From NCBI GenBank assembly GCA_944321705.1, contig CALUMG010000001.1, positions 186,001 through 250,000 on the forward strand: a stretch of 64,000 nucleotides of DNA, read 5' to 3'. Shown one piece after another: positions 23,878-37,431 of the stretch. The notes under the pieces were generated by a model. That model did no database searches. It was not told the DNA's origin and worked only from the letters and a program-made list of their open reading frames with translations. The stretch comes from an uncultured Muribaculaceae bacterium. Lineage in GTDB: Bacteria > Bacteroidota > Bacteroidia > Bacteroidales > Muribaculaceae. Position numbers and translations under genes: made by a program. Positions within the stretch are counted from its first letter, which is position 1, and each line of letters begins with the position of its first letter.

Positions 23878-24975
23878 GTGGCTACCTTTGGACTTGATAA
23901 GTGGGTTATGGAAAAAATAGATCTCTTGTATAAAGAGTGGCAGGAATTACAGCCGCTACCCGAACGGAAACGATACTTATTGAACCAACGTTTTACTGTT
24001 GAATACAATTTTAACAGTAACCATATAGAGGGGAATACGTTGACATACGGTCAAACAGAATTGTTATTGCTTTTTGACAAAGTGAGTGGGGAAGGCAATT
24101 TGAAAGATTTTGTCGAGATGAAAGCAAGTCAAGTCGGTTTGTTAATGATGCTTGATGAGGTGTATGAAAATAAGCATGTTCTCACTCAAAGTTTCATACG
24201 TCAACTGCATAAAACATTGTTGCGCGAGGACTATACAGTATATTATCAATTGCCTAATGGAGAACAATCAAGTTATACTATACATGCAGGGCGATATAAG
24301 ACGAGGTCTAACAGTGTTATTACACGATATGGAGATAGATTTGAATATGCTTCGCCGGAGGAAACACCGGCACTTATGACCGACCTTGTTGATTGGTATA
24401 ATGAGGCAGAACAATCAGGTGCTTATTCTCCTGTAGAATTGGCAGCATTGTTCCATTATAGATATATCCGTATCCATCCTTTTGAGGACGGCAATGGTCG
24501 CATTGCTCGCCTTATGGTAAATTATATTTTAGCCCGGCATGGATGGCCTATGATTGTAGTAAGGAGCCGCATGAAGAATGAATATCTGGAAGCGTTGCAT
24601 CAATCAGATCTTGAAATTGGACCAGACGCTTCAGTTGGAGCGCATGCCTCGATACTGCAAATCAGGCATTTCTTGAGATATTTCAAGTCTTTGGTTGCTA
24701 TGGAATTGAAATACAATATTGATTTTGCCAAAGAAAAATCTCCAAATGTTTGGTGGTATGACGGACAGCGTATCGTGTTTCGTAGTCCATCGACAAGTAA
24801 GATGCTGAATGCAATGCGACTGAATCCTGATATTACTATTGAAGCATTGAGCAAAGAAGTTGGAATAGTGACTGCTGCAGTCAAAAAACAGTTGCATAAT
24901 ATGCAAAATAAAGGTTACATCCAAAGGCAAAATAAAGATAGGAGTTGGTACATATTGGCAACGCCATCAATTTGA
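23878..24975 (+). CDS. Fic family protein (class II) with C-terminal winged helix
   Basis: 365 residues from a GTG start; the ATG at 23908 (MEKIDLLYKEW) is an equally likely start. Near residue 43-50 the motif SNHIEGN fits the inhibitory (S/T)xxxE(G/N) helix of self-inhibited Fic enzymes. The active-site loop is complete: HPFEDGNGRIAR with His200. The last ~65 residues look like a winged helix (LSKEVGIVTAAVKKQLHNMQNKGYI). Fic enzymes transfer AMP from ATP to protein hydroxyls; targets are unknown. The gene lies exactly between two 29-bp direct repeats that each carry a promoter element, suggesting an exchangeable cassette. Confidence 0.9.
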   Translation: MATFGLDKWVMEKIDLLYKEWQELQPLPERKRYLLNQRFTVEYNFNSNHIEGNTLTYGQTELLLLFDKVSGEGNLKDFVEMKASQVGLLMMLDEVYENKHVLTQSFIRQLHKTLLREDYTVYYQLPNGEQSSYTIHAGRYKTRSNSVITRYGDRFEYASPEETPALMTDLVDWYNEAEQSGAYSPVELAALFHYRYIRIHPFEDGNGRIARLMVNYILARHGWPMIVVRSRMKNEYLEALHQSDLEIGPDASVGAHASILQIRHFLRYFKSLVAMELKYNIDFAKEKSPNVWWYDGQRIVFRSPSTSKMLNAMRLNPDITIEALSKEVGIVTAAVKKQLHNMQNKGYIQRQNKDRSWYILATPSI

Positions 24976-25079: not shown

Positions 25080-25092
25080 ATTAAATTTGTGA
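25064..25092 (+). repeat. 29-bp direct repeat, copy 2 (contains a -7 element)
   Basis: Second copy of the repeat at 23779-23807, 1285 bases apart. Contains TAAATTTG (25082-25089), the likely promoter element for the structured leader that follows. Confidence 0.8.
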
Positions 25093-25094
25093 TT

Positions 25095-25360
25095 GGATGA
25101 AGCAGGCTTCGTCCGAGACATGTTAGAAATAAGAGGCGTTATGTCTTTATCTTGTATGTGAAAAGCCTAGGAAACTTACTCACAATGGAAACAAGAGATG
25201 ATATGACGGTCTTCACGCATACGCGTGGGGCTGTTATTCCCACATCTGTTTCCAAAGGTTTTCCTAGCACCTTCACATTAAGACGTGGCATTGCAGTTCC
25301 ACGCTTCGTGTATCAATAATAGTCCTTGTGGCAGCTGGAGGGCAGAAAATTATACCAGTT
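25095..25360 (+). ncRNA. Long structured 5' leader RNA, candidate cis-regulatory element
   Basis: Starts ~6 bases after the -7 element, at the expected transcription start, and ends at the ATG of the next gene. Elements in order: a 9-bp hairpin (25095-25103 with 25106-25114, one G-U pair); a long nested arm made of ATGTGAA/TTCACAT, CTAGGAAA/TTTCCTAG and TGGAAACA/TGTTTCCA (roughly 25151-25282); inside it the overlapping hairpins CACGC/GCGTG and GTGGG/CCCAC; then CGTGG/CCACG (25283-25303); and finally AGCTGG (25333-25338) with CCAGTT (25355-25360), whose last base touches the start codon. So much nested complementarity without coding potential indicates a folded RNA. The class is not recognised. 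Confidence 0.6.
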
Positions 25361-26023
25361 ATGAAAAAGCTACTATTACTTGCGTCAGTGCTGATGCTAT
25401 CATTCGCCATGAATGCACAAGAGGATGTAACCAAGTTCCTCGGTATCCCTGTTGACGGTACTAAGTCGGAAATGATTAACAAACTCCTCGCCAAAGGTTT
25501 TACTCGCACCGAATATGACCGAGAAGTTTTGGAAGGAGAATTCAACGGAATGTCTGTAGTTGTAAATGTTCAAACTAACAATAATAAGGTATGGAGAATT
25601 ATGGTGTTTCATGATGCTGGTTATGATGAAGCGAATGTTAGAATACTGTTTAACAATCTCGTGCATCAGTTTGCTGATAATTCAAGATATATGCCTTATG
25701 ATGCATGGGAGAATTTTATAATTCCCGATGATGAAGATTTTGGTTATGAGATAAGTGTGCATAATAAACGTTACGAAGCAACTTTTTTACAATATGATTA
25801 TTCAACAGCTCAGGAGAAAATTCAAGAAATGTTGCAGTCTAAATACACGCCTGAAGAATTAGAGAGTCAGACTGAAGAGATGAGAACAGAGAAACTGGAA
25901 TTGGCGCAAGATTTATTAATGAAAAAAGTTGTATGGTTTATGATAGGAGAGCAATACGGAAGATATTCCATTGTGATGTTCTACGAGAATGGATATAACA
26001 AAGCCGACGGTTCAGATTTGTAG
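25361..26023 (+). CDS. Small secreted protein of unknown function (GIPVDGTK motif)
   Basis: 220 residues from the ATG at 25361, chosen for the clean signal peptide (KKLLLLASVLMLSFAMNAQ). The mature N-terminus VTKFLGIPVDGTKSEMINKLLAKGF resembles a recurrent group of Bacteroidales exported proteins without known function. The rest is mixed, with a charged helical segment (ELESQTEEMRTEKLELAQDLL) near 165-190. It is expressed from a ~265-base structured leader. An 80-residue gene follows 17 bases later and is probably co-transcribed. Confidence 0.75.
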   Translation: MKKLLLLASVLMLSFAMNAQEDVTKFLGIPVDGTKSEMINKLLAKGFTRTEYDREVLEGEFNGMSVVVNVQTNNNKVWRIMVFHDAGYDEANVRILFNNLVHQFADNSRYMPYDAWENFIIPDDEDFGYEISVHNKRYEATFLQYDYSTAQEKIQEMLQSKYTPEELESQTEEMRTEKLELAQDLLMKKVVWFMIGEQYGRYSIVMFYENGYNKADGSDL

Positions 26024-37273: not shown

Positions 37274-37300
37274 CAGGCGAAAAAGATTATGGTTAAACAC

Positions 37301-37352
37301 ATGTGGAAAAATTTGGCTGCTTGCAACCACACAAAAAAATGCTAAAACTGCG
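37301..37352 (+). promoter_or_regulatory. SAM-II-like riboswitch aptamer upstream of metK
   Basis: P1 is UGUGG (37302-37306) with CCACA (37327-37331). The loop carries AUUU (37311-37314) and UUGCAA (37321-37326) directly before the P1 3' arm, and the 3' segment is GCUAAAA (37341-37347). These landmarks and their spacing match the SAM-II (metA) class pseudoknot. A pseudoknot is possible either as UUUGGC with GCUAAA or in a register shared with known SAM-II RNAs (GC-G-UU with AA-C-GC). SAM-II binds S-adenosylmethionine, and the downstream gene makes that compound. A covariance-model search is needed for proof. Confidence 0.7.
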
Positions 37353-37431
37353 ATTCTCAATTTCATGTAATCCTGTGAAATTTACGGAAATATAGTAGTT
37401 CAGTCGTTTAGCATTTTTCCACTAAAAAATG
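37335..37431 (+). promoter_or_regulatory. Probable expression platform of the metK riboswitch
   Basis: AAAAATGCTAAA (37335-37346), which includes the aptamer's 3' pseudoknot strand, is perfectly complementary over 12 bp to TTTAGCATTTTT (37407-37418). An inner hairpin AATTTCA/TGAAATT (37359-37382) lies between. The right arm can alternatively form a 7-bp hairpin with AAAAATG (37425-37431), 11 bases before the metK ATG. The two pairings exclude each other. Confidence 0.55.

What the first reader, a model, noticed from the sequence alone, without database searches (positions are those of the whole stretch)
25095..25360. Long, multi-stem 5' leader RNA of no recognised class
Seen: after a -7 element at 25082-25089 there are ~265 non-coding bases packed with nested complementarity. 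There is a 9-bp hairpin at the expected transcript start, a three-segment arm (ATGTGAA/TTCACAT, CTAGGAAA/TTTCCTAG, TGGAAACA/TGTTTCCA) spanning ~25156-25278, two overlapping inner hairpins that share bases, a CGTGG/CCACG hairpin, and a last stem whose 3' arm abuts the start codon. Overlapping alternatives (CACGC/GCGTG versus GTGGG/CCCAC; CGTGG/CCACG versus CACG/CGTG) look like a switch. Inference: a new cis-regulatory RNA, or a small RNA with its own promoter, controlling a small exported protein.
Basis: partly seen in the sequence, partly recalled or inferred. Interest (0 to 1): 0.75.

Follow-up and report, generated by a model that had tools for sequence, protein, structure and literature searches.

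The report
New switch-like leader RNA across Bacteroidota
The stretch in front of this small gene belongs to a large family of folded RNA leaders that matches nothing in the Rfam catalogue and recurs in many Bacteroidota before very different genes, and it likely works as a switch that would hide or free the point where protein synthesis starts.

Summary
Window 25095-25360 is one copy of a structured 5' leader RNA family without a match in Rfam 15. The own genome holds 5 copies. A covariance model hits 283 of 397 same-family genomes (Muribaculaceae, inferred), a better one 63 of 395 genomes of the class, 58 of them above antisense noise. Compensatory changes support the fold: 37 of 45 modelled pairs, covariation score 0.439 against 0.165 in shuffles. 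A structure-free scan recovers the main helices in three groups, with a loop-loop contact between P5 and a last hairpin, P6, that ends about 11 nt before the AUG. A TAnnTTTG promoter lies upstream in 135 of 152 distinct copies; the AUG starts 40-59 nt after the core in 121 of 159 placements. In the distant group one strand covaries with two exclusive partners. Downstream genes are diverse: exported proteins, RiPP genes, DarT, a beta-lactamase, restriction-modification enzymes. Best reading: a new class of cis-acting, riboswitch-like leader controlling translation start. The signal is unknown; nothing was tested at the bench.

The parts
25082..25089 (+). -7 promoter element TAAATTTG (TAnnTTTG type)
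   Evidence: Sequence; TAnnTTTG within 90 nt upstream in 135 of 152 distinct copies, mostly 45-55 nt before the core; control windows 5 of 151, 5 of 148 and 7 of 147.
25095..25114 (+). H0, variable hairpin at the expected transcript start
   Evidence: 8 bp; covaries: z 5.5 (type B), z 8.6 (type A); not among the top pairs in the distant group.
25131..25307 (+). Core of the RNA family (model R1 match, 186.7 bits)
   Evidence: window 25131-25307 = G000:C1:211131-211307. The window copy is in the training set of R1.
25133..25307 (+). P1 closing helix GAGGCG 25133-25138 / CGCTTC 25302-25307
   Evidence: 96.9% of cells paired, 4 of 6 pairs with compensatory change; z 12.1 distant, 3.2 type B, 1.2 type A.
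25150..25196 (+). P0 TCTTGT 25150-25155 / ACAAGA 25191-25196, crosses P2 and overlaps the P3 5' strand
   Evidence: z 7.8 type B, 4.7 distant; not recovered in type A, the window's own type.
25156..25278 (+). P2a ATGTGAA / TTCACAT (25272-25278)
   Evidence: z 23.0, 15.3, 6.7 in types B, A and distant; 8 of 8 pairs with compensatory change.
25167..25267 (+). P2b CTAGGAAA / TTTCCTAG (25260-25267)
   Evidence: z 7.7, 10.2, 6.8; 8 of 9 pairs with compensatory change.
25186..25254 (+). P3 TGGAAACA / TGTTTCCA (25247-25254)
   Evidence: z 20.4, 13.3, 7.3; its variable length aligns poorly, 63.2 and 78.6% of cells paired in the two modelled pieces.
25203..25237 (+). P4 ATGACGG/CTGTTAT and CACGC/GCGTG, strongly conserved hairpin
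   Evidence: z 5.8 (B), 5.3 (A), 3.9 (distant, base of the hairpin); 94.2 and 99.0% of cells paired.
25256..25272 (+). AGGT/ACCT bracket around the P2b 3' strand (possible pseudoknot)
   Evidence: z 4.0 in type A; otherwise only read in the alignments.
25284..25303 (+). P5 hairpin CGTGG/CCACG; its loop side (CAGTT, 25294-25298) is one half of the loop-loop contact
   Evidence: the P5 pairs in the model are 91.7 and 94.7% paired.
25322..25343 (+). P6, last conserved hairpin before the start codon; its loop GTGGCAGCTG carries the other half of the contact with P5
   Evidence: P6 z 7.0, 7.8, 4.3 and P5-P6 contact z 7.5, 5.7, 4.3; targeted test of the contact z 4.7 (A, n 34), 7.5 (B, n 67), 7.0 (distant, n 40), 0 of 1000 permutations each.
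25361..26023 (+). Regulated gene: 220-aa protein with an export-signal-like start, no Pfam or NCBIfam family
   Evidence: 4156 homologues. R1 finds the leader at 7 of 14 homologue loci, among them the four full-length same-genus homologues of 51-52% identity; the other 7 are weak short matches, contig-edge pieces or lack it.

Best explanation
The region 25095-25360 is one copy of a family of structured 5' leader RNAs without an Rfam match, and it likely acts in cis as a riboswitch-like switch that would decide whether ribosomes can start at the AUG at 25361. Supported by sequence comparison: a promoter-driven leader with helices P1 to P6, a P0 pairing that overlaps P3 (types B and distant), and a loop-loop contact between P5 and P6, with P6 ending a median of about 11 nt (17 nt in the window) before the AUG. 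Inferred: when the core folds and P5 holds P6, the start region is blocked and the gene is off; when the core opens, P6 is released and translation starts. In distant members a T-run after P1, and two competing partners for the P1 5' strand, suggest that the same switch may also act by transcription termination. What is sensed (metabolite, protein or physical signal) is unknown; a small ligand is my first guess because many bases outside the helices are conserved.
For: Family and fold. Promoter. AUG 40-59 nt after the core in 121 of 159 placements. P5-P6 contact in three groups, 0 of 1000 permutations each; a tail hairpin in 34 of 34, 64 of 67 and 39 of 40, last paired base a median of 12, 11 and 10 nt before the AUG (only copies with the AUG 38-66 nt away). 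Competing partners of the P1 5' strand in the distant group (n 69): local z 4.5, distal z 12.1, control z 0.0. T-run of 5 or more after P1 in 43 of 71 distant copies, 107 of 3820 random windows. Not coding: the 25152 frame stays open in 6 of 41 type A copies.
Against: No transcript, probing or reporter data. The genes behind it share no function, unusual for a metabolite riboswitch. The local P1 competitor is not supported in type A (z -0.7) or B (z 1.5), and P1 itself is weak there (z 1.2, 3.2). P0 was not recovered in type A. P6 does not cover the AUG in most copies. Tail hairpins were not compared with shuffled tails. Permutations do not remove relatedness (99th percentile of all window pairs 4.5, 4.0 and 3.5). 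Some scan pairs that rank above accepted helices have no place in my model: type A GAGGCG x CGGTCTCC z 6.3 (possibly a two-clade split), type B CGTTATGC x ATAGCATA z 4.7, distant TTATTTTC x AAAGTCCC z 4.4.
Confidence: 0.72

Rival explanations
1. The leader binds a protein (or the ribosome) rather than a metabolite, and this protein likely represses or activates many unrelated accessory genes.
For: Very mixed downstream genes fit a global regulator; P4 is strongly conserved, as protein sites often are; Bacteroides has global RNA binders such as RbpB (PMC11697453, passages).
Against: No protein partner is known; the size of the conserved core and, in the distant group, two competing pairings are more than a simple protein site needs.
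Confidence: 0.3
2. It is a free-standing trans-acting small RNA of about 210-250 nt whose gene happens to lie before other genes.
For: Own promoter and independent fold; distant copies have a T-run after P1 in 43 of 71, as a terminator would.
Against: Fixed AUG distance in 121 of 159 placements; P6 and its contact with P5 lie beyond any such end yet covary; Bacteroidales copies mostly lack a T-run (present in 9 of 41 and 10 of 79); close homologues of the window gene keep the leader. The known multicopy FopS sRNAs are about 65-70 nt.
Confidence: 0.12
3. It is a mobile or recombination DNA element (MITE- or attC-like) that spreads with a promoter and only looks like an RNA.
For: Dispersed, several copies per genome, different genes behind each, found on plasmid records and on one phage record.
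Against: Frequent G-U pairs that DNA would not favour (helix 6: UG in 49 and GU in 56 of 81 rows); copies in one genome belong to different subtypes (L001 type A; L003, L004, L069 type B); the usual place is between a promoter and an AUG. End repeats and target duplications were not tested.
Confidence: 0.07
4. It is a constitutive translation or mRNA-stability leader with no switching.
For: A start hairpin (H0) is typical of stabilised 5' ends (recalled); diverse genes use the leader; competing pairings are supported in the distant group only.
Against: The kept P5-P6 contact and, in the distant group, mutually exclusive pairings that both covary are costly for a passive leader.
Confidence: 0.15

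Closest known systems
Adenosylcobalamin (AdoCbl) riboswitches
   Same: Multi-helix core joined to a start-proximal hairpin by a loop-loop contact (their architecture is recalled, not from a call).
   Different: No cobalamin family in the Rfam results; downstream genes are not cobalamin genes as far as annotated.
Flavo-1, Bacteroidales-1, Bacteroides-1 and other Bacteroidota RNA motifs (PMC2864571, passages)
   Same: Candidate structured RNAs of Bacteroidota without known function.
   Different: Those with Rfam numbers gave no match at gathering score. Bacteroides-2 and GUCCY-hairpin show no Rfam number in that table and could not be compared.
FopS/GibS multicopy sRNAs of Bacteroides (PMC11697453, passages)
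   Same: Several copies per genome; FopS have sigma-ABfr promoters; act near start codons.
   Different: FopS are about 65-70 nt and act in trans; here a leader of about 265 nt runs up to the gene.
skipping-rope RNA (RF02924)
   Same: Weak full-length match, 17.3 bits.
   Different: On the opposite strand, far under the gathering score of 36.7. In the larger search (limit E 10) it was not listed, not even for the same element, so that call says nothing about the other copies.

Membership tests
Any Rfam 15 family | Match at or above the gathering score | tested here: not met
   Window and 15 other loci, no match over the element; the only sub-threshold match in the window stretch is skipping-rope, antisense, 17.3 of 36.7 bits.
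Cis-regulatory leader RNA | Conserved structure with compensatory changes | tested here: met
   37 of 45 pairs, covariation 0.439 against 0.165, 0 of 500 shuffles, slid versions at most 0.079, on an alignment fitted to the structure; structure-free scan in three groups.
Cis-regulatory leader RNA | Own promoter upstream and a start codon at fixed distance downstream | tested here: met
   135 of 152 distinct copies; 121 of 159 placements.
Riboswitch | Mutually exclusive structures linked to an expression platform | tested here: inconclusive
   Competing partners of P1 in the distant group only; P5-P6 contact in three groups; link to expression untested.
Riboswitch | Direct binding of a small ligand | not testable with these tools
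   Needs probing with purified RNA.
Riboswitch | Regulated genes point to one pathway | tested here: not met
   73 Pfam families over 103 downstream proteins, the commonest in 3 members.
AdoCbl riboswitch | Match to a cobalamin riboswitch model | tested here: not met
   None listed.
FopS/GibS sRNA | Free RNA of about 65-70 nt (FopS) with the R1 seed | tested here: not met
   Core 151-182 nt, mostly 40-59 nt before an AUG; FopS length. The seed itself was not compared.
Mobile element | End repeats and target-site duplication | not tested
   No empty-site comparison made.

The most novel reading that the evidence does not exclude
A riboswitch-like RNA class spanning the class Bacteroidia that reads one common cellular signal and holds accessory, costly or risky genes (restriction-modification enzymes, ADP-ribosylating toxin, RiPP factors, beta-lactamase, exported proteins) silent until that signal changes, with a subfamily devoted to phage-defence methyltransferases.
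Probability: 0.35. Interest if true: 0.9.

Novelty: new variant of a known kind. Interest (0 to 1): 0.78.

Why it matters
It would be a widespread leader RNA of gut Bacteroidota that Rfam lacks, present in 283 of 397 genomes of the window's family. Ribosomes of Bacteroidia fail to recognise Shine-Dalgarno sequences (PMC9976891, start of the abstract in a listing), so how they control start-codon access is an open question that this leader makes testable. Its link to restriction-modification, DarT and RiPP genes would point to a shared signal for releasing accessory genes.

Tried and rejected
Small protein encoded by the element: the frame of the 55-aa ORF at 25152 is open in only 6 of 41 type A copies. 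Known RNA family: none at gathering score (sub-threshold scans). Core strings in papers: 0 papers. Other literature searches, of which I saw listings, showed no title or abstract that describes this RNA. Two genome-wide ncRNA surveys (PMC11109978, PMC8632094; term search of the main text) do not contain Bacteroid-. Its HMP2_1881 (108 bp, Bacteroidetes, near radical SAM domains) is a possible overlap that I could not test. Phage element: one exact pattern found 10 viral contigs, one blastn query 1 phage record, so not phage-borne as a rule. A first P2a pairing was out of register between types A and B and was replaced by model R2 built on type B. A local alternative for the P2a 5' strand gave z 6.2 in type B but a small effect (9.4 against 9.1), was not in the listed pairs of the other groups and is not claimed. 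The P4 3' strand with the CCCACGC end of the core: z 5.1 distant (n 59), -0.2 type A, -1.4 type B. L054 and L060 stayed near 29-33 bits with R2 and are treated as unproven. Rows dropped: L002, L034, L043 from A1; L043, L060, L071, L073 from A4 and from the type B tests; the loop-contact test used only copies with the AUG 38-66 nt away (34 of 41, 67 of 79, 40 of 71), so the short-spacer subfamily is not in it; 103 of the 132 downstream proteins went into A3; one search counts placements (166, of which 159 gave an ORF) and 154 of these are distinct sequences.

Full report
What is there. The stretch folds better than shuffles (z -3.3). The gene behind it starts at 25361 and encodes a 220-aa protein with an export-signal-like start and no Pfam or NCBIfam family but 4156 homologues, one of them named as Bacteroides thetaiotaomicron.

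It is a family. A DNA search of the own genome found the window copy and three others at E 5e-18 or better; a covariance model (R1, 29 sequences) found 5 (one is cut by a contig end). In the same family a DNA search hit 28 of 59 genomes and R1 283 of 397 (own genome included). Contigs of the same length among named records (L144, labelled Muribaculaceae; L121, Heminiphilus faecis) place this family as Muribaculaceae (inferred; another such contig, L124, is labelled Porphyromonadaceae). A second model (R2, 46 sequences with a structure that I set) hit 63 of 395 genomes of the class in 30 families, own genome included. Antisense matches reach 36 bits, so I trust genomes with a hit above 37 bits: 58 of 395. 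In a sample drawn for the phylum 13 of 247 matched, two of them under 37 bits, all 13 of the same class; the output does not show how many genomes of other classes were in the sample. Eleven distant copies scored 28.7-51.1 bits with R1 and 51.9-77.5 with R2, as homologues should, though one of them (L049) is in the training set of R2; two others (L054, L060) did not rise.

The fold is real. On the R2 alignment of 81 rows (three antisense matches and one weak extra place among them) 92.9% of cells pair, 37 of 45 pairs have changes on both sides, and the covariation score is 0.439 against 0.165 in shuffles (0 of 500) and at most 0.079 when partners are slid. This alignment was fitted to the structure, so I also ran a scan that assumes none: for every pair of 8-base windows over the leader with flanks, pairing within a sequence was compared with pairing across sequences. 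In type B (46 sequences, 8778 window pairs) the top distinct pairs are P2a (z 23.0), P3 (20.4), P0 (7.8), P2b (7.7), the P5-P6 loop contact (7.5), P6 (7.0), a local P2a alternative (6.2), P4 (5.8) and H0 (5.5); P1 has 4.0. Type A (43 sequences) gives P2a 15.3, P3 13.3, P2b 10.2, H0 8.6, P6 7.8, the contact 5.7 and P4 5.3; distant copies (11) give P3 7.3, P2b 6.8, P2a 6.7, the local hairpin H1 4.8, P0 4.7, P6 4.3, the contact 4.3, P1 4.1 and the base of P4 3.9. The 99th percentiles of all pairs are 4.5, 4.0 and 3.5. Pairs outside my model also rank high: type A GAGGCG x CGGTCTCC (6.3), type B CGTTATGC x ATAGCATA (4.7), distant TTATTTTC x AAAGTCCC (4.4). The first is largely a split between GAGGCG/GGTCTCC (18 of 28) and GAAGCG forms and may be a clade effect or one more alternative. 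Permutations do not remove relatedness; replication in three groups is the main safeguard.

How it sits on the gene. A TAnnTTTG promoter element lies within 90 nt upstream in 135 of 152 distinct copies against 5 of 151, 5 of 148 and 7 of 147 in control windows. The AUG lies 40-59 nt after the core in 121 of 159 placements. Between them is a hairpin in 34 of 34 (A), 64 of 67 (B) and 39 of 40 (distant) tails with the AUG 38-66 nt away, the last paired base a median of 12, 11 and 10 nt before the AUG; the tail pairs with the P5 loop side better within than across sequences in all three groups (z 4.7, 7.5, 7.0; 0 of 1000 permutations each). I did not compare tail hairpins with shuffled tails. In the window the contact is CAGTT/AGCTG plus CCAC/GTGG with one base between the two pieces. 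A 6-bp stem directly abutting the AUG is enriched only in the distant group (9 of 40 against 2.8 expected; A 4 of 34 against 4.0; B 5 of 67 against 7.1). Homologues of the window gene keep the leader at 7 of 14 loci, including the four full-length same-genus homologues of 51-52% identity; of the other seven some are cut by contig ends, some are weak short matches and some lack it.

Signs of a switch. In the distant group (69 copies) the 5' strand of P1 covaries with its distal partner (z 12.1) and with a local hairpin partner (z 4.5) while the two 3' strands do not covary (z 0.0); type A shows neither clearly (local -0.7, distal 1.2), type B the distal one (local 1.5, distal 3.2). In the distant group the P4 3' strand also covaries with the CCCACGC end (z 5.1; A -0.2, B -1.4), and a T-run of 5 or more follows P1 in 43 of 71 copies, against 9 of 41 (A), 10 of 79 (B) and 107 of 3820 random windows. 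P0 overlaps the P3 5' strand. From this I infer a two-state leader, acting on translation start and perhaps, in distant members, also on termination. The direction (folded = off) is a guess.

What it regulates. 103 downstream proteins match 73 Pfam families, the commonest in 3 members; the largest sequence cluster is the window gene's family (20 of 159 placements). Export-signal-like starts are commoner by a simple rule of my own: 79 of 124 against 107 of 401 ORFs of 100 aa or more on the same contigs; distant set 24 of 48. In the own genome the other copies precede HxsD (TIGR03976, 1.8e-27), a zinc-ribbon/PNPOx protein, a lipoprotein-like protein (by its start), and a 45-aa Cys-containing peptide followed by a radical-SAM-like protein. 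One downstream protein matches DarT. On plasmids the leader lies directly before a DUF4433 protein in Parabacteroides distasonis (DUF4433 = DarT is recalled) and 50 nt before blaMUN-1 in Bacteroides uniformis. Ten distant copies, picked by eye, share a short T-rich hairpin and an AUG 25-32 nt away; seven of them precede type III or IIG methyltransferase genes (L052, L055, L059, L260, L284, L287, L302), L264 precedes an RT-associated PDDEXK-like protein, L265 has no match and L274 has an exported-looking protein.

Compared with the known. No Rfam 15 family fits. The layout recalls AdoCbl riboswitches (recalled knowledge), but membership is not met. Of papers I saw passages only: FopS, the 104-motif table, the human-microbiome survey and the flavobacterial transcriptome, whose passages report 64 structured 5' regions and do not describe this one. 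Bacteroides-2 and GUCCY-hairpin have no Rfam number in the table and could not be compared.

Verdict. Cis-acting control is well supported, switching is supported in part, the signal is unknown.

Noticed in passing
window 37297-37355 (+): SAM-II riboswitch (RF01726, 64.8 bits), the only Rfam match at gathering score in the window.
   Followed up: no
L313 3001-3210 and 3261-4169 (B. uniformis plasmid pBUN1): A copy of the leader lies 50 nt before the extended-spectrum beta-lactamase gene blaMUN-1.
   Followed up: partly
L052, L055, L059, L260, L264, L265, L274, L284, L287, L302: A distant subfamily with a T-rich hairpin 25-32 nt before the AUG, in seven of ten upstream of type III/IIG restriction-modification genes.
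   Followed up: partly
L002 215-1663 (+) and L004 1140-1466 (-): Own-genome copies precede a 45-aa Cys-containing peptide plus a radical-SAM-like protein, and an HxsD gene: possible RiPP loci.
   Followed up: partly
window 25333-25338 / 25355-25360: AGCTGG/CCAGTT pairing in the window that would compete with P6 and its contact with P5 and abuts the AUG; such stems are not enriched in type A (4 of 34, 4.0 expected).
   Followed up: partly
window 25133-25138 and about 25208-25215; A1 type A rows: The P1 5' strand (GAGGCG or GAAGCG) also covaries with GGTCTCC/GGTTYCC inside P4 in type A (z 6.3); outside my model, possibly a clade split.
   Followed up: partly
L127 4674-4847 and 4876-5044 (-): Two leader matches in tandem before one zinc-ribbon gene (73.1 and 32.5 bits, the second within antisense noise); L080 also holds two copies.
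   Followed up: no
window 23878-24975 (+): Fic-domain protein with a winged-helix match just upstream of the leader.
   Followed up: no
L244: A same-genus homologue of the window gene (28% identity) carries stop codons inside but still has a well-scoring leader (157.9 bits).
   Followed up: no
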